NCBI GenBank assembly: GCA_015178975.1
Contig: WHVD01000003.1
Location: 868,001-932,000, forward strand
DNA: 64,000 nt
Source: Hysterangium stoloniferum
Taxonomy: Eukaryota; Basidiomycota; Agaricomycetes; Hysterangiales; Hysterangiaceae
Direction of reading: 5' to 3'
Shown here: piece by piece, positions 7,161 to 35,300 of the stretch
Position numbering within the stretch: the stretch's first letter is position 1
Layout: each line of letters opens with the position of its first letter
Notes under the pieces: model-generated
The model's input: the letters and a program-made list of their open reading frames with translations, nothing else
What the model was told of the DNA's origin: nothing
Databases searched by the model: none
Made by a program: the position numbers and the translations under genes

Positions 7161-10100
7161 ATGTTCAATATCTGGAAGCAGGCCTGGCGTAATGGAGAAT
7201 CTTCTAGAGCTGAAAGCCCAAGTGAAACCACATTTGACGAGTCTGTGGCTCGATGGAATCCTGACGCAGCCCCGGTTCCCGCCGATACTCAGACAACGGT
7301 GGATGAGGATCCGACTAATACTACTGTCAATACTGCTAGAAAACGCCCTAGAGCTGATGAGGAGAAGAAATTGCCTGGTTTGATCGATGGCGTTACGACA
7401 CCCGATAGCAAACGACCTAAGAATGAAACATCTGGGGACGGGACGAAAAAGGATTCTGTTGCTTACTATCTCCCCGAAATTCTGGATGAAAATCTTGATT
7501 TGGTATCTGAGTCTGACGCGGCGCAGGTTTCGACTGTTTCGCAGTCTTATATTGACGAAGTTTCCGAACGCGCTCGGAAAATAAACAGTGAGCATGGTAA
7601 GTCAACGAAGTCAATCTTATAATAATCACTATGATAGCCTTGGCTGTTCTGGACACTCTTGAGCGTAAGTGCCATATTGCGAATAGTCGTTTTATGGTAG
7701 TAATGTCGATTAAACAGAAAAGAGCGCCATTATTATGAATCTTCTGGCATGGTCTGTTGAGGTAGAAAAATCCAGGAGGCAGAAGGGTTTGTCTAGGCGT
7801 GTGGCGCTTCTGGTTGTAACGTTGGTTCTATTTCTTCACCTATCCAAGACGGCGACGCAACTAACCTGGCATATGCAGACACAACGCACTAGCAGAAGAT
7901 CAACCGCAGATTTTGCGACATACTGAACCCTTCAATATTGGGGCCTTCGGCGATCTTTGGCAGTGCTCCGCGGCAGATCCTTGGGCAGATCTCTTGCATA
8001 AAGATCTTGTTATGGTTTCAGCGAAGGTAGGGTACACTGTATATACGCAAACGACGCTAATGAGCAGTTGATCTTAATATAGGCCTTTTTGGATTCTCTT
8101 CTACGTAATCAACTCTCTCTGGCGCAAGTAAATCTGATCATTTTGGACGATGCCCATACTGCTGGCGACCCTCACCCCATGGCTCGTATTATGCTTGAGT
8201 TCTACAGATCTGCTCTTCGCGATGAAAGGCCTCGTATACTCGGTATCATTACCCCAGCTATTGATACGAAATTTTATTACGACGTAAGTATTCTTAAGCT
8301 TGAGAAACTGCTGGATGCGACGGTGGCTGGTATCTCCTCTGAAATGCGAGATGAGGTGATGGCATTACCCGATAAACCCAACGAATTGGTGATTTTCTAC
8401 GACCCTCATCTGCAGATGGGAAAAGTCGATACACCATTACTACGACAACTTCGCCAGATAGATCCAACTATGGAGTGCTTTAGAAAGCAATTCAAAGGTG
8501 CAAAGCATGTGTATGTACTGTTTTCATTCTGTACTTGATGGCATTTAAGTTTCTCTCAGTGGACACGAGCTCGGATCGTGCGCTAGTGATCTTGTCTGGC
8601 GAAAAGCTTTGCGAGAGATGGATGATTCCGACCTCATCCATGTCGATGATGATGACGAGGATCATCCGGAACAGGATCCTACAATAAGGGCTGCTAAGAT
8701 CCAACAAAGGGTCCGGAACACTGTCAAAAACTGGATATTTGCTATGCCCAATCTTGACTACACCTCTCGGGGCTATAACGTCACACCTAAGCTTGTTAAG
8801 CTTGTCCAAATTTTGAAAGCTTGCGAGCCTCAAGGTGACGGTTTTCGTGGTATCGTATTCGGTAAAATTGAACCACATGACCTAAATAAATCATTGTACT
8901 TACTGGTATCTGCCAGTACAACGAAGAGTCGTCGCGCATGCATTATTGGATATCTTGCGAGTCTTAAGCGATTATTTGGTTTTCCTTCGCCCTCAAGTAA
9001 TAACTGGTCATGGACCGTTCATGGACCCACACGCTCAGGTTTGGCTTTATTATTATTTTGTTTCGGATTCTAATTATATATGTGGTGTTGGTAGCAAGAC
9101 CTTTTGGAAGATTTCCGTATTGGAAGTACAAATCTATTAATAGCCACCAAATTTGCTGAAGATTTGGAAGTTCCTGCATGTTCTTGTGTCATTAGGCAAG
9201 TGAAAGGCAGCTGGATACCCCACTTTAGTAACTTCTGATGATTTGCCATCACTAGATTTAACATATTTGAAAGTCAAGTTTCGTATGCCTATGCTCGCGC
9301 CAGGTGTCGGGGTGGCGATAGTCATTTGATTCACATGGCTGAGAGAGGGAATGATGTGCATCGTCGCGTTTTGTCAGACATAGCGAAGTTGGATAAGCGA
9401 ATGCAGAAATGGGTTGATTCGATAGTGGATAGTCCCGAAAGCTCTGCTCCACCATCATCGCTAAGTGAGACACCAGATCCATATCGCTCCGACAGCGATG
9501 ATGAAGAGGACGAAGGTGATGCCTTTGTAAAAGATCCCACTACCAGCGGGCGCATACATGCTTATAATGCTACCACGGTCATTTACCGCTTTGCTGCCTC
9601 AGTGAATGGAAATACGGACGAATCACTATCCTCTCGCCCACTTTTCGAGTTTCAACAGCTGCGTGGATATGGGTCACGCAATATGCACATATGCACAGTC
9701 ATCTTACCTCCTGGGTCTCCTATCCGAACCGTATCTGGTCCACCTTATCCAACTCAGTCTGCTGCCAGACGCGCTGCTTGTTTGCAGGCATGCGAAGAGC
9801 TTTTCTACAAGGGATACCTGGAATATAAGCTCTTTCCCCGTCCTCCCCCTGTAACTGTGCGGCAACAACGAGAAAGCTACGTATCTCCCGCCATGCTTGA
9901 AGAAGTAAGTGATAAAGATGATGATGATGCATATCTCTCGAAACAAAAGACTTCGGGGACACGTAGTTATCCCCGTCGGCAGCCCGACTTTTGGGTTAAT
10001 TCAGTTGGAGTATTTCATGGTCGTCTTTATCCTACTGCCATCAGTATTGAGGGATATGATGATCCTTTGAGCCCCCACCAGCCGTTGCTTATCCTGACTC

Positions 10101-13100
10101 GCCTTCCGTTGCCCCCTATCGAAAGCTTCAAGCTATTTTTCACAGGTGTTGCACGTAACGTTCACTTCCAAATCGGGGCACCCTTCGATGTGAGCGAGGA
10201 GCAATTAAATCTACTCCACAAGTACACGCTACGCGTATCTCGAACTGTGGCTAATAAACCATTTATCTGTAAATCAGACGAGCTTGTTTACTTTATTGCG
10301 CCCTTAGATTCGCAGTGGAATTCCCCAGATTCGTCCGTCCATAAATGGTATCTGCCTGATCTTGCTAGCCACATCCCCTGGCACCTGGTGGCTTCTGCGG
10401 CGGCGAATTGGGTGGTTGCTCTCAATAGGGACTCAGTCGAGAGTCTTGTTGAAGATATTCGCGACGCTGTAATTCAGGACAGATGGGTTGAATTTACTCG
10501 TCGTTATGAAGCTGTCGCTGTTCGTCCAGATCTTAATCCTTTGTCTAAGCCCGACGATAGCCCTGTCAGTTTGGTACCTTTAAAATTACTCCTATGCACT
10601 GATGAGTATTATGTAGCGTGAAGCGCATTACGAAAATTTGGTTGAGTACTGCAAAGCACGACGTAAAGGGTTTGAAGGCTTGGAGGACTATGACCAACCA
10701 CTGATCGAAGTTTCGCGCCTCCCTATCGTCACAAACCTCCTTAATCCAACTTCCCGACCAGCTGCAGAGTCGAAGAAGAATCCCGCTAAATGCAAGTTTC
10801 GCCGTGCTGTGTCAATTGGGTACTTCACTTAATTGGTTTATTAGATCTGATTCCGGAGCTATGCTGCCGTTTGACTCTTCCCGCCAGGTATGCCACCCTT
10901 GAGCTTGATTTTCCTCACCTACTTATATTATACTCAGCACGCTGCGTATGGCCCTATTACTACCTTCAATCACACGTAGATTGGACGATATTTTATTGGT
11001 CAAAGAGCTTAATGCGAAGTTTTTCGACCATTGTATCGCTGAACACTTTCTACATGCTGCTATTTCAGCACCCTCAGCCAGTGTCGAATTTGATTACGAA
11101 CGGTTAGAGTTATTAGGTAAAGTCCTTGTAAATCCATGAGTTTCATTTCTAAAAGAAAGGCAAGGGGATGCGTATTTGAAATATCTTTCTTCAATCTATC
11201 TCTTTGTCACAAATCCAACGCTGCATGAAGGCGCCTTACATATTGCGAGACAACGCATCATTAGCAATAGGTCCCTATTAAAAAATGCGGATCGTAGTGG
11301 CTTACCGCAATATATCCAATCTAAGCCGTTTACATCCAAAGCTTGGCAGCCCCCGAATTTCAGAGTTTTCCGCCCGCCACGACCTATCATTCCGGATGAA
11401 GAATACCATGATCCTGACGAAGATGCCCAAGTGGTTCCAAATCCTGATGTTTCAACGAATGAACCTAAGCAGGACCATGTACTCGCGGCTGCAGCAGATA
11501 CCCCACAGGCTGTTACTCATACCGATAGAAATTCGCCATCGCTTAACTCAAATCTAACCAACAATGTCCAAACAACAGTGAAGGACAAGATTCCTACTTC
11601 AACAATAGTTTCAACTTGCACGCGGGATCGCCCTATGCCTATCAGCAAGAAAGCTAAACGGACACAGGACGATATAAACGTGCAATGGCTTGGCGATAAG
11701 GTAATATGATTACGATTAACTATAGCGAACGTTGCTCAAGATATTTATTCAAGGGAGTCGCAGATGTGGCAGAAGCCATAATCGGCGCGGCCTATATAAC
11801 GGCGGGGAGGGAGGTGGCTTTGCGCGTTACAAAGGCTATGAACATCCCGGTACCACACATAGATCGGTGGACTGATTTCGCGAGGAAAACCTTAGCACCC
11901 CCTCCTGATGTCTCGGCACCTTTAAAACCTGGAACCGTGGAGCATCTCGAAGAGGCCATTGGTCATTCTTTTAAGAGACCTCATCTGTTGGCACAAGCTT
12001 TGGTGAGTTTGTCAATAGCCTGGTTGGTCTCTTCTTGGGATACTTACCTTCCATAGACACATGCCTCCATTCAGGGTCACGAGACGACATGCTATGAACG
12101 ACTCGAATTTATTGGTGATGCTATCCTTGATTTCCGTATGTCACCCAGATTCCTTCTATTCGGACGCTGATACAATACAAACTCCTGAATTTTCAGTGGT
12201 AATCCGGTATATTTTTAATAGGGACGGTCAGCTCAGTCCTGGGGCCTTGACGTTGCTAAAGGTAAGAAAATTTTACGTAAAACTTGCCTTTGTGTTAATC
12301 AGGGTAGGGGGCTATGGTCTCTAATTCTACCTTGGCTGCTGTTTGCGTGTATTCTGGCGTGCATGAGCACCTCATATTCGAATCACATAGTATCGCTTCC
12401 AGCATTCAAGCGTACTCCGAACTTTTAGACAGCGCTCGTAAAGCGGATGAAGCGCGAGCGAAAATCGAGGGGAGATTACCTGGACAATACTGGGTGGATA
12501 TAGAGCAACCAAAGGTTATTTACTGATACATTTGGAACATTAATCTTGCTAACTTTCCCGGAGGTTTTATCCGACGTCTTGGAATCCGTAATGGGAGCCA
12601 TTTATGTGTCAGATAATTTCTCACCTGAAGGAGTCGAAGCATTTTTCGATAGCGTCCTAAAGCCATTCTTTGATCGGCACATCACTTTGAGAACTCTATC
12701 CCACCACCCAACCAAAATTCTGTTCGAGCTTTTCCAATCTAGAGGCTGTCAAGAATTCTTAATCGATAAGCATTCTGATTCAGAAACGCCTGGGTTTGTG
12801 ACCTGTGACGGTGGGATACACATTTTCGATCGATACTGTTCTTTATACTCACGCATCAAATTTCAGTGGTTTGCCATGATATAATCCTTGCGAGCGCCGA
12901 GGACCCAACGGCCCAGTTTGCTGCCCGCAAGGCATCATTCCTAGCACTGGATGCCTTAGAAGGGGATGTCGAGTTTATGTCCCGGACTTGTTCTTGCAGA
13001 AGTATAAACGAAGCGAAGAAGGCGGCAAAGAAAGCTGCCACAAAGAACGTGCCAGAATTCGACGAAGCAGAGGCAGATCTTGAGATGAGAATAGTGGAAG

Positions 13101-13892: not shown

Positions 13893-16425
13893 TTACAAAG
13901 GCCACTCAAGCTTGTCGGCGAAATTCCAATGAACGGCCTTCACTGTTGTGTACTCGCTGAGGGCATATTCTCCCAGCTCTCTACCGATACCACTCTGCTT
14001 GTAACCACCGAACGGAACATTGTTATGCAAAATGTTATAAGTGTTGATCCATACAGTGCCCGCTTGAAGTTCCTGAGATTAAAGAATTTAAGGTTGCAGC
14101 AAAGTAGTCAAGGCGGAGTAAATACGTACACCGGAAACCCTAAGACACTGAGCAGCATCGGATGAGTGCAGGCCGGCAGCAAGCCCATAAGTGGTATCAT
14201 TGGCGATAGCAATGGCCTCCTAATAAAGTTAAAAAATTGTGAACAACATTCCACACGTTGATAGAGCACACGTGCCTCTTCAGTTGTGAACTTCCCAACA
14301 GCAAGCACTGGCCCGAAAATCTAGGAAAATCTGCATTTGCATCGACTCCCAGAATACACCACTCACTTCTTCTTTCACCTGTAATGAACACGGGCGTCGA
14401 TGCAATGCAGGCTATAGGTTAATGAAACAGCTTACAATTTTCATATCAGGTTTGATATCGGTAAAGACTACAAAAGTGTAGATAAAAGACTTATACTTGT
14501 AAAATGGGACAACTTACTGCATGGGTCCACGAAATAGCCTTTGCCTTGTCTCTTCTCTCCACCAACTAGGACAGTTGCACCTTCTTTCTTTCCAGATTCG
14601 ATGTATCCCCAAACTCGGTCGTATTGGAGCTTCGAGATTACAGGTCCTCCAGCGGTTTTTTCATCGAAAGGGTCGCCGACAACGAATTCTTTCGCCTTTT
14701 TAACAAGCAGCTGGACAAACCTATCATAGATAGATGCCTGAACGTAGACTCGGGACCCGGCAGTACAATCCTGTCCGCTATTCATTGTGTTTATAAGAAC
14801 ATGTTTTCGCATATCAGCGAATCACGCTCGCCTATTCCATGTGATTCCGAAGATAGCCCAGTGAGCCGCTACCCAACTTTCAGTAAAATATTTGATTGCG
14901 TTGGCGGTACTAACCTTGCTCCAAATCGGCCGATTCGAAGATGAGATGAGGGGATTTACCACCAAGCTCAAGTGAAACCTGGAATACGGTGAGAATAGCC
15001 CCGAAAACATAGCCAGTAGTCTTACTTTCTTGAGATTACTTTTAGCTGCCGCTTCCAAAATTTTTCGTCCAGTGATGGTTGATCCAGTGAAGGCTACCTA
15101 TTGCAAGTAAACTACACAGATTTCTTTGTTGAGTGATATATCACAGACTTTATCGACACCAGGATGGCTGGAAAGAGCGGCACCCCCGATGCTCCCCAGT
15201 GAAGGGACACAATTGAGAACACCCGCAGGATAGCTGGACATAGATAGAGTCAACCATAGATACAAGGATGAATGATGACCACAAACCCAGCTTCTTGGGC
15301 AAGTTCACAGAGTTTCTAAAAAAGTATGAGCTGCATAATGAACGAATACGACGAATTATTACCAGAGCCGTCAGAGGTGTATTCTCTGAAGGCTTCATAA
15401 CAATGGTACATCCGACAGCAAGCGCTGGAGCAACTTTCCAAGACCTGGAATATCTACCTTCAGATGGTTGACAGATTTGACAGGGGTCGAACAAACCACA
15501 TATTGATCGGATAATTCCAAGGAATGCTATGGGTTCGTTATTCATTTAGTAAAGATGTCAACTAGTCTCAGATGATCACGTACATCTGCCCACATACACC
15601 AATAGGATCGTGTTTTGTAAATACAAATTTGGATTTATCGTTGACCTCGATGGTCTTTGATTGTCCTTAAAACCGAGTATGATGAGGCAATGCAAGAACT
15701 GCTAACCTTTCCTTGTACTTTGTCAGCAAATCCGGCTAAGAGTTGAATATATATGCATCGTCAAATAACACTGGGCGGCGGTAGTGCTAATTCACGGACC
15801 GTAGTATCTCAAACAAGCTATAGTGTCTGCGATGTCAGAGTCTCTGCACAATACAAACATCATAGGGAGGACAAGACTGAGGAATTGCGGTATCAATTTA
15901 CCTTGCGAATCTAACAGGCTTTCCACTGTTGACGGATTCCAATTCTGCCAGCTCCTGCTGATCGCGTTCTATAAGGTCGGCGAAGCGATTAAGAAGTTTG
16001 GCTCGTTCAGTTGGTGCTGCGTTCTTTCCCCAAGTAGTCTGAAATGCTTTCCTGGCAGCTGCAACAGCGAGGTCGATATCCTTGACAGAAGCTGAGTACT
16101 ATCAGTTTGTTTCACAGGCTCGATCGCGGAAGTGCAATTTACCACCAACAACCGTAGTAATAATCTCTGTAAAGATTTCGTTATTGCCTTAATCATACTT
16201 TACCTTCATGAACGCACCTTCAGTAAATGGATTTATTATGCTACATTCGTGAGCAGTTAAATACTACTAGTTCATCCTTGGGGAGGTGATAATTACTCAC
16301 GGTAGATCCTTCTCAGCACCGTCTGCGCTAGGTACAAACTTCCCATTGATGTATAGTCCCGTTTGAACAGTCACCTTTTTCCCAGTAGGAAGTGAGAGCG
16401 TAGCAGATAGAGCCTTGATCGACAT
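13893..16425 (-). CDS. NAD(P)+-dependent aldehyde dehydrogenase
   Basis: Oxidises aldehydes to acids; probably cytosolic, as no presequence is seen. From the ATG at 16425 the protein starts [20 protein letters not shown] and then [11 protein letters not shown]. Minus-strand exons carry the class motifs in order: [18 protein letters not shown] (14935-14995, the active-site Glu loop), [20 protein letters not shown] (catalytic Cys in GQDC, about 14755), [37 protein letters not shown] split by an intron (the second catalytic Glu), and the C-terminal [14 protein letters not shown] ending in TAA at 13893-13895. About ten introns interrupt roughly 500 codons. It belongs to the fungal Ald group; the substrate (acetaldehyde or another) cannot be read from sequence. 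It is tandem with COX8, whose start lies 160 bp beyond its stop. Confidence 0.93.
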
Positions 16426-17062: not shown

Positions 17063-20000
17063 TCACGGAGCTTGCTGCCCTATACCGCTCCCAAATATCA
17101 AGTCGATCTTATTTTTCCTGTAAAGAATTAAATTATGAAAGAAATGTGTAATTGTGGCAACGACTGACCGGTCCCAGACCAAAAGGCCATCACTTCTTCG
17201 CCGAAAGTGCATAACACGATGGAATGGAACCTACACAAATCACCGAAACAATCGTCAGAGTCAAAATTTCCACAATGAAATAGATGGCATCCTTACAAAC
17301 TCCTCATCCACTACATCACGCTTCCAATTCAGCAGTGGTGTCTCCATCAGCCCCGAGAACCGGTCTTCGTAACCGATAACGTAGTCTTCCGCATTCAATT
17401 CTCTATCCCACATGATACGATTGTAAATATCGGAACTGGTTCGAAGTTTTGCAGCGGGTATGTGGGGCGTGTCACTCCCTCTTAATGCCGGTGGTCGATT
17501 CTTTCTAGCTTGTGTAGATGAAAGGAAAGTAAATGCCTCCTCTGCATCAGGATCGTCCAAAGGGTCAATCTCAGCATCGTCTGGTGATTCGTCGTCGGGA
17601 TCAATGTCACCATCCACCCATTCAGGAGGCAGGGTAATATTGGATGGAAGGTGGGTAGAGTCAACCAAAGAAACTGAAACAAACATGTTTGATGGATCGT
17701 AGTATCTTTGATCACGTTGTAACTCGTCTTCAAAGGCAAATACTATGGCTTGAACCTTGCTCTTGTTCGATGACGTGAGTGAGTCGAAGCCTGCGAAATA
17801 GAAGCTTCGCAGCCCAGTCGCAAGATCTCCCGGATCATTGGCATCAACAAACCGGTTTGGCCAAAGCCTGGCATAACAATGAGGGAGCGAGCTTTGCAGT
17901 AGAACAAGAAGCTATAAAAAGGTACACATCAATGAGCCTGGAGAGGACAATAAAAGCGGCACTAACATGTGGTAATCTTGATTGGACATAGCTAACCCAC
18001 GCACGAGCTTCAACAGTACTGCTGTTCCATATTGAGAGATCGATTTTTATAAAACAATTATGGCGTTGTAATGCCCTCTTAAAAGTATATCCGCATATCC
18101 CCCCTGTAGCGCATACGTCTTCCCAGGAACGACCAGCAGACAATTCAGAATGAGCCCGCTTGAAAGATGCGACGATAACCCTTAGAGTATGTTGATTGGC
18201 GTTCTGAACAACATTTTGCGTCGGCTTCTCCGTCGATAAAATCACCATCGGTTCTCGTCCCGTTGCACGGCTATACGACGTAGAATTTGTAAGCCCTGGT
18301 ACAGTTACAGCATGCTGAGCCCAATCCCACTCTGCATATGTCGAAAAAAATGCACGTATGAACTGTGATGCTGAAGATCCGGGAGAGCATTGCAAGACCA
18401 CACGTGTCAAGAGCAGCGTCAAATGGATGCCGCCGAGGTAACCCAGTCGAGATGAAAAGATGCCTTCTGAAACGCAATGAATCTTTAACGCTCTGTAGGC
18501 TAGGCGAAATGCTGCCAACGACGAGATTGGTAGGACGCGTAAGAGGGCAAGTTGAACCCTATAAGCATTGAGAGTTCGAAGTGAGGATGCTGGAAGCAAG
18601 AAGACTGAATCATTGGAAGGAAGGACTTTGAGTTGACCCCAGCTAAAAGACGAGGGTGTTTAGTGACCTAATGATGATTACAAAAGTCACTCGAAATACG
18701 TACACTTCTAACACTTTAGCAGCTGAGCAGTACTGCATGTCTACGTGCACAGTGCCTATGGTCAGCTCCATCATAGGGACACTCGCGTCTTTGATGAATC
18801 GTCTGAGTAAAACTTCTGGGAGATCAGTCTTGTCGGAAGGATTGCCTGTTAGTAACCTTGAGGTAGACCTCCGAAGCCGCGTACGAGCCAGGGACCAAAA
18901 TGACTTGGGTGAAATGTTACCCACGACTAGAATATCAACATCACTGTCCTGTGTGTCCACTTGTAGGCCATAACTGCCAACTGGAACAAACTGAAACCTA
19001 ACGACGGAGTGTAGCTTGGTAAATCCGGCATCTTCCTCTTTGCCCGTTTTTGTAGTAGGAGGCGCTATGGCAAAGATTTTCTGAAGCGCTGAGACAACGT
19101 TTGACCTGGATTCACTCTGTGAGATGGTCGGGAAACCTCCTTCTCTGCGAATAAACTGCTCTAGTTGCTCATCATCTCCATTTGACAATGCTACTTGTTC
19201 AGTGACGGGCGCTACAGATGAAGTATCAGTTGTCATGATTTCTGCAGTACCAAACGAGATATGTGCAGCAACTCCATTGTGATCACTCCCGCTGTCATCT
19301 TTACCAAATATATCGACAGATGTAACGGAGAGATCCTTCTCATGACGGACCCAAATCCTATCATAGCGCTGAGGAGATGAATCCTTCTTCATTGTTAAAG
19401 TGGCAAGTGGGTTTGCACGAGGGTCGTAAGTCGCTCCTCCATCTTCGAAAAGGTGGATATGAAGCCAAGCATCTTGGAAAATGTCTGAAATCGCCGATGG
19501 AACTGACTGAGAAGTAGCTAGGTTAAAATCTCCAGCCATGATCCATGGCGAATCATGGAACCGCTGCTGAAGAACAGCGATCAGAGAATTCAACTCTTCT
19601 AATTTTGTCTGATGGTGTATAGCCTGCAGACCAGCAGTAAGATGGACAACTGCAATAATGAGAGGTGAGTGATCCTCATTAGGCAGGGAAATAAGTGCGG
19701 CAGGTTTGTGCTTCCGTAATTTGACTGGTTCCCAAGTAAACCCAAAATCCTCCCTCGCAAGTACGACAATATTACGCTCATCAGGGAGAACGTTACAGGG
19801 ATCATGTGTGCACCAACGCCAAGTTGATTGAATAATAGGTACGGAGAGTAAACGCCGTAACGCCTCATCTGTCACCTCCTGCAGACACAGTATATCAGGG
19901 ATAGGTTGTACCCCAAGAATTGTTGAAAGAAGGCGAGGGAAGCGGTCATTTAAAGAGTGATTAGGGTCATGAAGGATATTGAATGTCGCAATGTGAAGCC

Positions 20001-20664
20001 CGCTCGGTCGCTGGGGTAATGGTTTTGACGGTGACCAGTTCGATGATTGGAAATGATAGGCAGTAGGTAATAATCCGGTAATCGCAACAGGCAAAAAAGG
20101 TGGGGCATTTAAGGAAAATGGGATTTCATCATAAATCTCCATTTTGCCGTCGTCCGCGGCAGATTTTCGAAGTATGACGACACTGCACATCTCCCACTCG
20201 ATACCATCCTGAATCAACATGCTTCCCTTTTCATGGAGAAATGTCAAGGAATTGTCCCAATGTTGGGCTTGGCCAAGAGTCAAATGTGGCACGGCTGGTC
20301 GACCTGTGTAATTAAACACTTTTGCTAGCGTATCATATACATGACGTAGATTGCCATCCTCTGAAACACCAAGATACACGGTATCATATTCACGCTGCTT
20401 GAACCTAGACACTTTGTCCAGTTTTATCGAAAACGGCGGAATATTTTCCTTGGAGAGATCCTCTCTAATGAGAGAAGATGCTCTAGGGAGCAGCTCAGGC
20501 TGTACAAAAGGGAAGAGGAGGGTAAGGTGGGCTGTCCAGCGAGGAAAGGATTTGTCATTGCCTGTACGAAAGGCATTGATACGTTGCTGAATATGAGGAG
20601 GAGGTAGAATAACTAGAGCAGTAGCATAGGATGAGAGAGATGGGATGCTGGTGTTCCCTGCCAT
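17063..20664 (-). CDS. Four-domain RNA repair/processing protein: 2H phosphoesterase + EEP + nucleotidyltransferase/PAP core + MJ1316
   Basis: One long first exon and a few short introns encode about 1,100 residues. Residues ~10-185 are a 2H phosphoesterase with both HxT motifs (AHLTL, H46; PHLTL, H127), a fold that opens or removes 2',3'-cyclic phosphates. Residues ~222-472 are an endonuclease/exonuclease/phosphatase domain: HIATFNIL, LQEV (E263), AGDFN (D379), GSDHNG (D461-H462). Residues ~550-650 are a polymerase-beta-like nucleotidyltransferase with PVGSYGL, DSDVDILVVG (D575, D577) and VHVDMQ (D642), joined to the poly(A)-polymerase central fold (SLRTLNAYRVQLALLR, FSSRLGYLGGIHL). The C-terminus is an MJ1316 domain (DIYNRIMWDRELNAEDYVIG, YEDRFSGLMETPLLNWKRD, LLVWDRKNKIDLIFGSG), proposed in the literature to recognise cyclic-phosphate RNA ends; it ends QQAP, TGA at 17063. 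All visible catalytic residues are intact. The repair role is inferred from domain families. It is divergent from proteasome alpha-2. Confidence 0.9.
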
Positions 20665-31878: not shown

Positions 31879-32202
31879 TTTTTTTTTTTTTTTTTTTGTT
31901 ATATTTGTATCCCGCTTCAAGCAACAATGGCTAACTGCGGCTAGGGGGTGGAAAGGCCCCCAGAGAAACTATGCTACGGTGGTAAGACGTTCCGAGTGAG
32001 CTTCGTGGCTACGATGGATTTTAGAGGGCTCGAGTCAGGGTGGGGACGGTGAAAGTCGGCGTACGGAGTTAGATGTAGCTAGAAAGAGAAAAAGAGAAAG
32101 AAGACCAAGAAAGGGATATGTACATTGGCCATGGCGTTCAGGGACGATCTGTTGTGGAGGGATTGTGGGAGAGGTGTGGGGCGAGCGGGGGAGTCGGCGT
32201 CG

Positions 32203-32219
32203 TCACGTGACGAAGTCTT
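32203..32219. promoter_or_regulatory. CACGTG site, copy 2 (sulfite reductase-proximal)
   Basis: Second exact 17-bp copy of TCACGTGACGAAGTCTT, about 107 bp upstream of the chosen sulfite reductase ATG at 32326. A Cbf1-like bHLH site is expected for a MET gene. The site would be inside coding sequence if translation began at the upstream in-frame ATG (32131), which argues for the downstream start. Confidence 0.6.
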
Positions 32220-32325
32220 GACAAGTATTGCGCGATGTGAGAAGTCCGAATTACTTTTATCTCACCTTGTCATCCACCACTCAAGCTTGATAGTAAGAGT
32301 CTTTTGTATCGACATAAAGCTCGGA

Positions 32326-35300
32326 ATGTCTCAAGTGAGTGATATCAGTAATTCATTTCAAAAATTGCACAGGTTAATAGGCCACCAGGCATCAACTTTG
32401 CTGGAAAAATTCAAAAAAAATGATGTTGTGGATGTTGCTGCTTCATCAGTCATAGAAAGCATTTCCTCACAATCCAGTAATATCGTTTTTTTGTATAATT
32501 TGGCCGTGGAGTCGGGATTCGGCGCTTTGACAAAGGAATGGTCGACATTAGACCAAAACTCAGCCAGAGTCATCCTCCTCCAGACCCGCATTGGTGCTGG
32601 GTTGACCTTAGTTGGTCGATTGTCAGAAGGGACGAGCCAAGATGGTCATAGGTCCTTGCCGTTGACTGCATATACCAGTCCATCTGGTCTGGCGCAGATG
32701 GCGCCTGCTTTAGACATCCTTCCCAAGCCGACATCTTCGAGACGGCTGGTTATTCAAGTTGCCAGTATCACATCTGTTGGACCTGACCTCCTTCTTTCGC
32801 CTACTCTGGGACCTCTTTCCGTCTCATTATTCTCCTTGCCGGAGACTTTCACGGTGTTATTATCCTCAACCCCGCAAGAATCTATCGACCTCGCTACTGT
32901 CGCTTACAGACTGCCAAACAGTCATGTTGTGCATATATTTGATTATCATGGTTCTGCGCGGGAGATAACGCGCGTGCAGTTTTCACCAGTGGCGTCTAGT
33001 ACCAACTCTTCCGTGCAAGAAGCGTTGGCCCAGTTGAAATATTCCTTCTTTGATTATGCAGGCGACAAGGACGCTCATACGGTTCTTGTCATGCTCAATA
33101 GCCCGCTCGCCAATATAGCCAACGCATTCGGTCACAGGATACCTGGATTTGGTGTGCTAGTTGTTCGTGTACTTCGACCTTGGGACGAAAAGGCACTTCG
33201 TCATGCATTGCCGAAGACAGTCAGAAATATTCATGTAATGGAAGATGTTCCTACAGAGACTGTCCGGGGCGGATTATTCAATGATGTCTTCTCGACGCTT
33301 TTCGATCCTAATTCGCCGGATGTGACGACGTTCCAGACTCACCGAAATATCCCCGCGAAGACACAGAAATATTTCTCAACACCCGATGCATTCCCGTCGT
33401 TCATTTCAAGCCTTCTGTTGCCATCCGCCCTGCCGTTAGTGCCTTTTAAACCAATAACGTCGCCGGCTTCCAAGAAGCTCCTATTCTTGTCTGCTGTTGA
33501 TTCCAGTACAGCGAGCCTTCCTGCTCTTATTAGCAAAATGTTCTTATCGCATCGTAGCATCAAAACACGTCATTTGTCTGCATTTGATGCGTATTCCAAG
33601 GTTGGGGGGGTTTCGGCGGACCGCATTATACTGTCAGCCGAGTCTGATGGCAATGGCGACATACCTGTTTCATTTTTGCTTCCGTTGGATCCAGCGGTTC
33701 CAGAGGACACGGAGGGTACAGCAGACTTCGTTGGTATTCTCGAGCCAGCCCTCTTGAAAACTCATTCCATCTTGAAGTATGCGCGCCCTAATGCGCCAAT
33801 TTTGGTGTGCACGAATTGGACATCCGCGGAACTCATATCCAATGTTGCACCACAGGCTTTAGAACATATCCGGAGTCGTTCCTTGAAGGTATATACTCTC
33901 GACGTGAAAGGGGTGGCCGCGCAGTTGCTCCCGAATGCTCAGAGTTCGAACAAAGATGTCCTTGAAGCGGTCATTGGCTATATTGCATTTATGAGACTAT
34001 ATATCGGTGGAGGTTCAGCAAGTATTAAATCCGTTGAGCAGCTGGCACGTTCCGCGTTTGGTTCTTTTGTGGAAGGAATCGATATAGGTGTCGTTTGCGC
34101 CAAGGCTTGGGATGCTCTAATATTCCTACTCTTGCCCTCCAGCGAGGGTGATTCTATAGAGGCGAAAGCTGTTTCACTCAACGAGTTTGGCTTCAACACG
34201 GTGGAGCCAATTGGTTGTGAAAGTCTTGTAGATGTGACCATTCCTAAGGTTAGCACTTGGCATGATGCGGCTAAACATATTATTTTCCGCGAGGCATTTG
34301 CGCCTCCGCCGCCAACACCGTCTTCAGACGAATCCGAGACACATGTTCAGACGGCAGCACTCAGACCTGATGTTCCAGAGCGCACTTTCCTCGTGACTAC
34401 AACGGTAAATCGCCGCCTCACGCCTAAGGAGTACGACCGCAACGTCTTTCACCTTGAATTTAACACTCAAGGAACTGGTCTCAAGTATGCGATTGGTGAG
34501 GCCTTGGGTGTGCACGGATGGAATGACACTGATGAGATCTCGGACTTCTGCCGCTGGTATGGGGTAGACCCCAACCAGCTTATCATCCTCCCTGCCCCTG
34601 GTAGAGAGGTTGGAGGGACAAAGCTGATGCATACGAGAACCATATTCCAGGCTTTGCAACAGCAGGTTGACATCTTCGGCAAGCCACCCAAGTCATTTTA
34701 TGCGGCGCTCTCGAAATATGCACAGAAACGGACTGAGAAGATGGCCCTCTATTTCATTTCATCTCCGGAAGGCTCATCGACGTTCAAGAAGCTATCGGAA
34801 AAAGACACGGTATCTTTCGTTGATGTTCTGAGATTATACCCCAGTGCTAGGCCTCCAATTGCTGAATTGTGTGACCTTGTTGGCGATATCAGTCCAAGGC
34901 ATTATAGTATTGCAAGCTCCCAGGCAGCGGTTGGTGACCGTGTAGATTTGTTAGTAGTCACTGTTGATTGGGTGACGCCTAGCGGTGAGCATGGTTCAAT
35001 AGAATGTCTAAGATATGCATTTCTCAACTCTGAGCCTAGGCGCACCAAGATATGGTCAATGCACACGCTATTTGGCTAATTTGAAGGTTGGTCAGCGCGT
35101 CACTGTATCAATCAAGCCTAGTGTAATGAAGGTAAGAAGATCGCTTGCAGATCCAAGAACTCTCTGGAAGCTAACACATGAGTGATAGTTACCGCCGAAT
35201 CCGTTACAACCCATTATCATGGCTGGCCTTGGTACAGGGTGAGTAGGCGACTTCTTTAAACATACATATGTTAATCTGTTCCAACGTAGCGCCGCGCCTT

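What the first reader, a model, noticed from the sequence alone, without database searches (positions are those of the whole stretch)
17063..20664. Single-chain RNA-end repair machine: 2H + EEP + nucleotidyltransferase/PAP + MJ1316
One polypeptide combines a cyclic-phosphate-processing 2H fold (two HxT motifs), an EEP nuclease/phosphatase with E263, D379 and SDH460-462, a polymerase-beta-type transferase (GSYGL, D575/D577/D642) on a poly(A)-polymerase core, and a C-terminal MJ1316 RNA-end-recognition domain. Every visible catalytic residue is kept. A plausible cycle is to recognise a cleaved RNA with a 2',3'-cyclic phosphate, open and remove the phosphate, then add nucleotides. Domain functions are family knowledge; the cycle and target (tRNA, U6-like RNA or Dicer products) are inference. 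The gene is about 4 kb from a Dicer gene.
Basis: partly seen in the sequence, partly recalled or inferred. Interest (0 to 1): 0.88.

Follow-up and report, generated by a model that had tools for sequence, protein, structure and literature searches.

The report
Fungal one-chain RNA-end healing-and-tailing enzyme
A fungal gene makes one protein with several enzyme-like parts that together look able to find a broken RNA end, clean it and add new nucleotides; the same protein occurs in many other fungi, and no laboratory test of it was found.

Summary
On the minus strand, 20664 to 17063, five exons encode 1122 aa, identical to NCBI BU17DRAFT_36825 of Hysterangium stoloniferum. Pfam finds 2H, EEP, PAP_central and MJ1316 over their cut-offs. 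By hand count 77 of 139 retrieved proteins carry all four labels: Agaricomycetes, Pezizomycotina, one chytrid. In 84 aligned rows the seven EEP and four of five transferase active-site residues are identical; both 2H histidines are kept wherever covered. Predicted folds match LigT/YjcG, TDP2 and canonical poly(A) polymerase.

Best reading: it heals and then tails RNAs ending in 2',3'-cyclic phosphate. Animal mitochondria run such a relay with separate proteins (PMC9525292). I found no assay.

Corrections: the adenine-contacting Asn of poly(A) polymerase is kept in 0 of 84 rows, so "poly(A)" is not safe; Dicer leaves 3'-OH ends (recalled), and an aldehyde dehydrogenase gene lies between. The fusion may already be listed in a 2016 survey that I could not read.

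The parts
17063..20664 (-). whole gene, five exons, 1122 aa; introns 18703-18643, 17966-17912, 17296-17231, 17168-17118
   Evidence: all four introns GT...AG, 51-66 nt; product identical to NCBI BU17DRAFT_36825
20104..20637 (-). 2H phosphoesterase domain, residues 10-187, HLT46-48 and HLT127-129
19246..20010 (-). EEP domain, residues 219-473; N229, E263, H341, D379, N381, SDH460-462
17630..19209 (-). canonical-PAP-type nucleotidyltransferase with central and RNA-binding regions, residues 486-973, over exons 1-3; GS563-564, D575, D577, D642
17459..17596 (-). acidic linker of low model confidence, about residues 985-1030
   Evidence: pLDDT under 50 at 988-1019; sequence
17084..17449 (-). MJ1316 domain, residues 1034-1116, over exons 3-5; R1063, P1086, H1088, R1089 shared with archaeal stand-alone MJ1316
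   Evidence: Pfam PF04457 62.8 bits, cut-off 26.3

Best explanation
A single-chain enzyme that heals and then tails RNAs cut by endonucleases that leave a 2',3'-cyclic phosphate. Proposed steps: (1) the C-terminal MJ1316 domain, with the RNA-binding region of the PAP part, docks the cyclic-phosphate 3' end; (2) the 2H domain opens the cycle, probably to a 2'-phosphate; (3) the TDP2-like EEP domain removes the phosphate, giving 3'-OH; (4) the PAP-type transferase adds nucleotides of undetermined base. With no ligase domain in the chain, the likeliest outcome is a tail that marks the fragment for decay or protects it, not rejoining. Shown here by computation: the architecture, the predicted folds, the retention of active sites, the spread of the fusion. 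Inferred: substrate, order of steps, tail base and fate.
For: Domains and folds. Active sites: EEP N229, E263, H341, D379, N381, D461, H462 in 84/84 rows; D575 and D642 84/84, D577 83/84; H46 78/78 and H127 82/82 where the row covers the site. One exon encodes 2H, EEP and the start of the transferase without a stop. Quick trees of the EEP and of the PAP part each give the basidiomycete / ascomycete / early-fungus split of the whole protein, and 2H and MJ1316 nearly so: the parts seem to have travelled together. Precedent: in Angel2/Angel knock-outs terminal phosphates block polyadenylation of certain mitochondrial mRNAs, and recombinant ANGEL proteins (EEP fold) hydrolyse 2'-P and 2',3'-cP but not 3'-P (PMC9525292 section 8). 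Possible sources of such ends exist in this genome: matches to RNase T2 and to the Ire1/RNase L family. Genes with the Pfam domains of Trl1, Tpt1, Usb1 and a second PAP are elsewhere, so those jobs are probably covered. In archaea, stand-alone MJ1316 lies next to a CLP1-type RNA kinase gene in 10 of 29 loci and behind a DHH-DHHA1 gene in 12 of 29: weak support for RNA-end work.
Against: No biochemistry. The EEP looks nearer to TDP2 (a 5'-tyrosyl phosphodiesterase) than to the ANGEL/CCR4 group. Cyclic-phosphate recognition by MJ1316 is stated in PMC6514570 (passage), but I saw no measurement. Endogone has 2H-EEP-PAP without MJ1316, so the rest can do without it. The first 2H motif is HxN, not HxT, in 61 of 78 rows that cover it. 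A first set of nine archaeal MJ1316 loci showed an RNA kinase neighbour in one only, and no 2H or RtcB among the 28 other ORFs scanned. Domain-to-domain placement in the model is unsure (pTM 0.57).
Confidence: 0.55

Rival explanations
1. Repair for ligation: the chain restores missing 3' nucleotides on cut tRNAs or other RNAs and hands the 3'-OH end to a partner ligase, so the purpose is rejoining.
For: MJ1316 fusions are discussed as RNA-repair parts (PMC6514570 passage); a gene with the Trl1 CPD domain is in the genome.
Against: No ligase or kinase domain in the chain; fungal Trl1 needs a 2'-phosphate on its 3' end (recalled), which this EEP would remove.
Confidence: 0.18
2. Trim-and-tail editing: the EEP is a 3' exonuclease or deadenylase (as in CCR4, nocturnin) or a TDP2-like remover of 5' adducts, and is not a terminal phosphatase.
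Against: A transferase behind a 2H domain needs a phosphatase step to get 3'-OH; ANGEL2 shows that the EEP fold can do it.
Confidence: 0.17
3. The chain makes or breaks small nucleotides (2'-5'-linked oligonucleotides or cyclic nucleotides) instead of tailing RNA.
For: The adenine-contacting Asn is lost; 2H fold matches include viral 2'-5' and cGAMP phosphodiesterases; EEP proteins include the 2',5'-phosphodiesterase PDE12 (PMC9525292 passage).
Confidence: 0.05
4. Annotation artefact: two neighbouring genes joined by prediction.
For: None found.
Against: 2H, EEP and the transferase start share one open exon; the PAP domain itself crosses the first two introns; 77 of 139 retrieved proteins carry all four labels (hand count).
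Confidence: 0.02

Closest known systems
ANGEL2 followed by MTPAP (animal mitochondria)
   Same: EEP-fold enzyme removes a terminal phosphate so that the end can be polyadenylated (PMC9525292)
   Different: separate proteins; no 2H and no MJ1316 (recalled); this EEP is nearest TDP2 and this transferase is of the canonical PAP type
LENG9 (vertebrates)
   Same: has the MJ1316 domain (PMC9635633 passage) and, as recalled, a 2H domain
   Different: LENG9 has a CCCH zinc finger and, as recalled, no EEP or transferase; no CCCH hit here
Canonical nuclear poly(A) polymerase (Pap1, Pla1, PAP alpha/gamma)
   Same: whole three-part fold and catalytic Asp triad
   Different: 2H-EEP added in front and MJ1316 behind; position of Asn226 is not Asn in any of 84 rows; the genome has a second PAP gene that keeps that Asn
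Usb1 and Trl1-CPD (fungal 2H enzymes)
   Same: 2H fold acting on RNA 3' ends
   Different: matched by separate genes in this genome; this 2H is nearest YjcG/LigT
MJ1316-containing RNA-repair fusions discussed by Burroughs and Aravind
   Different: whether this exact fusion is listed there is unknown to me; the survey cited for that sentence is, as I recall, their 2016 paper, which is not held

Membership tests
2H phosphoesterase superfamily | two HxS/T motifs in the 2H fold | tested here: met
2H phosphoesterase superfamily | 2',3'-cyclic phosphodiesterase activity | not testable with these tools
   needs an enzyme assay
EEP (PF03372) | metal and catalytic residues N, E, H, DxN, DH in the EEP fold (set recalled) | tested here: met
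ANGEL2-type 2',3'-cyclic phosphatase | ANGEL/CCR4-group EEP with the ANGEL2 active-site loop (PMC13247085 passage) | tested here: inconclusive
   ANGEL2 profile hit at E 0.0048, behind TDP2; not among the 50 rows shown; loop not examined
Canonical poly(A) polymerase | GS motif, DxD plus third Asp, central and RNA-binding regions | tested here: met
Canonical poly(A) polymerase | adenine-contacting Asn (yeast Asn226; PMC7470959 passage) | tested here: not met
   A 63, S 14, Q 4, G 1, T 1, P 1 of 84 rows; hence 'PAP-type transferase', not 'a poly(A) polymerase'
MJ1316 domain (PF04457) | profile match over cut-off | tested here: met
   62.8 bits against 26.3; R1063, P1086, H1088, R1089 shared with archaeal members
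MJ1316 domain (PF04457) | binds 2',3'-cyclic phosphate RNA ends | not testable with these tools
   stated in PMC6514570; no measurement seen
RNA repair ligase systems | an RNA ligase in the system | tested here: inconclusive
   none in the chain; a Trl1 CPD match is elsewhere in the genome, RtcB has no match; a partner ligase cannot be tested here
LENG9 | CCCH zinc finger with MJ1316 | tested here: not met
   no CCCH family up to E 0.1 in the Pfam scan

The most novel reading that the evidence does not exclude
An ancient fungal machine that turns cyclic-phosphate RNA fragments into RNAs with a distinct, possibly non-adenine, 3' tail. The position of the adenine-contacting Asn is not Asn in any of 84 rows and the next residue is K or R in 82 of 84, so the tail base may have changed, and the tail would be a chemical tag for RNA cut by RNase T2, Ire1 or ribotoxins.
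Probability: 0.22. Interest if true: 0.82.

Novelty: new variant of a known kind. Interest (0 to 1): 0.6.

Why it matters
RNA ends with 2',3'-cyclic phosphate are missed by ordinary RNA sequencing (abstract of PMC6277466 in the listing), and I know of little on what becomes of them in fungi outside tRNA splicing and U6 maturation. One protein with all the needed parts, found from a chytrid to mushrooms, would give a direct handle: remove it and sequence cyclic-phosphate ends and 3' tails. It would be the single-chain form of a relay that animal mitochondria run with separate enzymes.

Tried and rejected
Dicer link: the gene is confirmed, but it is not the neighbour and RNase III leaves 3'-OH (recalled). 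Conservation of the neighbourhood in other fungi was not tested; I found no collection here that holds fungal genomes with their DNA. Mitochondrial location: judged unlikely, no K or R in the first 25 residues and the 2H domain starts at once. PDB sequence search with exon 1 alone (E up to 0.01) and with the MJ1316 piece (E up to 10): nothing. A search of large proteins with the MJ1316 region found only members of this family, 6 of 47 candidates; other MJ1316 fusions may lie outside that length and word limit. The lists are capped: one search lists 120 of 145 and 120 of 138 matches, from about 8000 word-sharing candidates each, so the absence of yeasts, Eurotiomycetes or rusts from the names seen is not evidence of absence. 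Papers: ten searches, several with capped listings; none of the titles, abstracts or passages that I saw describes this fusion. Direct name searches were 7, 85 and 98. Seen in part: passages of PMC6514570, PMC9922296, PMC7470959, PMC13247085, PMC9525292 with its section 8 in full (90), PMC7026655, PMC9635633. Others: search listings only. Burroughs and Aravind 2016: nothing seen, recalled.

Rows dropped before counts: A2 holds 84 of the 120 proteins listed; the 36 left out were mainly 2H-EEP-only pieces, partial models and near-duplicates, chosen by eye. Results against the reading among those seen: P0098, left out of A2, lacks the DxD stretch (perhaps a gap in its gene model); P0070 in A2 and P0138 outside it have N at the second Asp; P0006 matches only positions 2-45 of 75 of MJ1316. 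In the EEP-only tree the ascomycete group has support 18. Of the nine first archaeal loci, the MJ1316 reading frame in L140 was not resolved by my ORF script.

Full report
What is there. The window lies in contig C223 of a 111-Mb assembly. Minus strand 20664-17063 holds a five-exon gene with four GT-AG introns of 51-66 nt. The spliced product, 1122 aa, is identical over its whole length to NCBI BU17DRAFT_36825 of Hysterangium stoloniferum, of the Phallomycetidae (lineage); this supports the gene model and names the organism. Exon 1 is one open frame of 653 codons that runs from the 2H domain through EEP into the transferase, and the PAP part continues over introns 1 and 2, which speaks against a wrong joining of two genes for 2H-EEP-PAP. 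No transcript data were available.

Active sites. In alignment A2 (84 of the 120 proteins listed) N229, E263, H341, D379, N381, D435, S460, D461 and H462 are invariant, as are G563, S564, D575 and D642; D577 is N in one row (P0070), and also in P0138 outside A2. H46 is H in 78 of 78 rows that cover it, H127 in 82 of 82. The partner residue of motif 1 is T in 17 and N in 61 of 78; of motif 2, T 77, S 4, A 1, G 1 of 83. Random sets of columns from the same domain reached the active-site mean in 0 of 20000 draws for EEP and for the transferase, 28 of 20000 for 2H, and 117 of 20000 for four MJ1316 residues, which I had picked after seeing their conservation.

A change in the transferase. Published work says that yeast Pap1 Asn226 contacts N6 of the adenine (PMC7470959 passage). 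By the HMMER alignment to yeast Pap1 that position is 718 here. It is A 63, S 14, Q 4, and G, T and P one each in 84 rows, never N, and the next residue is K or R in 82 of 84; the Lys215 position is K in 68 and R in 12, the Tyr224 position Y in 69 and F in 8. The second PAP gene of the same genome keeps YSN there. So the catalytic machinery is kept while the base contact is not. What base is added is open.

Age and spread. By hand count, 75 of the 120 proteins listed carry Pfam labels for all four of 2H, EEP, PAP_central and MJ1316; with two of the three new ones and none of the 16 new ones this is 77 of 139. Named holders include Sphaerobolus, Gautieria, Mycena, Gymnopus, Fusarium, Trichoderma, Neurospora, Xylaria, Choiromyces, Rhynchosporium and the chytrid Entophlyctis (its domains). 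Endogone has the first three without MJ1316. A quick tree of 31 chosen rows puts basidiomycetes (SH-aLRT 100), ascomycetes with unnamed rows (91) and the early fungi (99) apart; Entophlyctis has a very long branch, so its place is unsure. EEP alone (ascomycetes 18, basidiomycetes 93, early fungi 97) and PAP alone (80, 98, 94) give the same three groups; 2H and MJ1316 each differ for one group. The simplest reading is one old fusion inherited together, with MJ1316 lost in Endogone or gained separately; transfer between fungi is not excluded.

Genome setting. MJ1316 and PF13563 each ring at one place in the genome, both here (lower bounds). Matches to Trl1-CPD, Tpt1 and two Usb1-like copies are elsewhere, RtcB is not found. 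RNase T2 matches lie at two places and Ire1/RNase L-type matches at several. So tRNA splicing and U6 trimming probably have their own enzymes, and sources of cyclic-phosphate ends exist.

Archaeal MJ1316. I searched the genomes of 28 of the 80 loci listed; 9 of 28 have it. In 36 genomes of the phylum of Methanocaldococcus sp. SG1, 29 have it. A CLP1-type kinase gene lies directly upstream in 10 of 29 (kinase named), a DHH-DHHA1 gene upstream in 12 of 29 and a CBS gene downstream in 14 of 29 (single-linkage clusters; one representative of each scanned). The first nine loci showed one kinase neighbour only. This supports nucleic-acid-end work only weakly. R1063, P1086, H1088 and R1089 are shared by fungal rows (73 of 73, 72 of 74, 71 of 73, 71 of 73 that cover them) and by 26 archaeal sequences, where the matching R, P, H and R are invariant. 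They are the candidates for end binding.

How it most likely works. PMC9525292 shows the logic with separate proteins: without ANGEL2, mitochondrial mRNAs made by non-canonical cleavage keep a terminal phosphate and are less polyadenylated; recombinant ANGEL proteins remove 2'-P and 2',3'-cP but not 3'-P in vitro (section 8). A 2H domain that leaves 2'-P (inference; the CNPase abstract in the listing gives 2'-monophosphates for that 2H enzyme) would feed such an EEP, and the PAP-type transferase would then extend the end. The chain has no ligase, so tailing for decay or protection is likelier than rejoining. I put 0.55 on this relay as a whole; the architecture itself is close to certain.

Known or new. 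The protein is in public databases as 'hypothetical protein' and its relatives also as 'polynucleotide adenylyltransferase'. [quoted passage not shown] I recall that the source cited there is their 2016 survey, not held, and it may list this very fusion. I found no experimental paper on it in the searches named. Hence 'new variant of a known kind', interest 0.6.

Noticed in passing
about 8000-13100, + strand: Dicer-like gene: Dicer_dimer in the ORF 9242-10618 and RNase III in 11140-11706; its ends are my estimate. An aldehyde dehydrogenase gene (part in 14471-14821, minus strand) lies between it and the target.
   Followed up: partly
about 20942 onwards, + strand: Proteasome alpha-subunit gene, head to head with the target gene and only a few hundred bases from it; a shared promoter region is possible.
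   Followed up: no
own genome C508:269491-270163 and 274056-274729 (L010-L013): Two Usb1-like (HVSL) copies about 4 kb apart, apparently a tandem duplication of the U6-trimming 2H enzyme.
   Followed up: no
A4 columns for residues 46-48: Motif 1 of the 2H domain is HxT in the basidiomycete rows and the chytrid row, and HxN in its ascomycete, Endogone and unnamed rows; in A2 it is T in 17 and N in 61 of 78.
   Followed up: partly
L138, L153, L154, L160, L164, L165, L167, L172-L174: In archaea of the Methanocaldococcus phylum the MJ1316 gene follows a CLP1-type RNA kinase gene in 10 of 29 loci; in others it sits behind a TrkA_N-DHH-DHHA1 gene or before a CBS gene.
   Followed up: partly
32083-35079, + strand: Long ORF with FAD_binding_1; looks like a sulfite reductase flavoprotein subunit (recalled likeness).
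   Followed up: no
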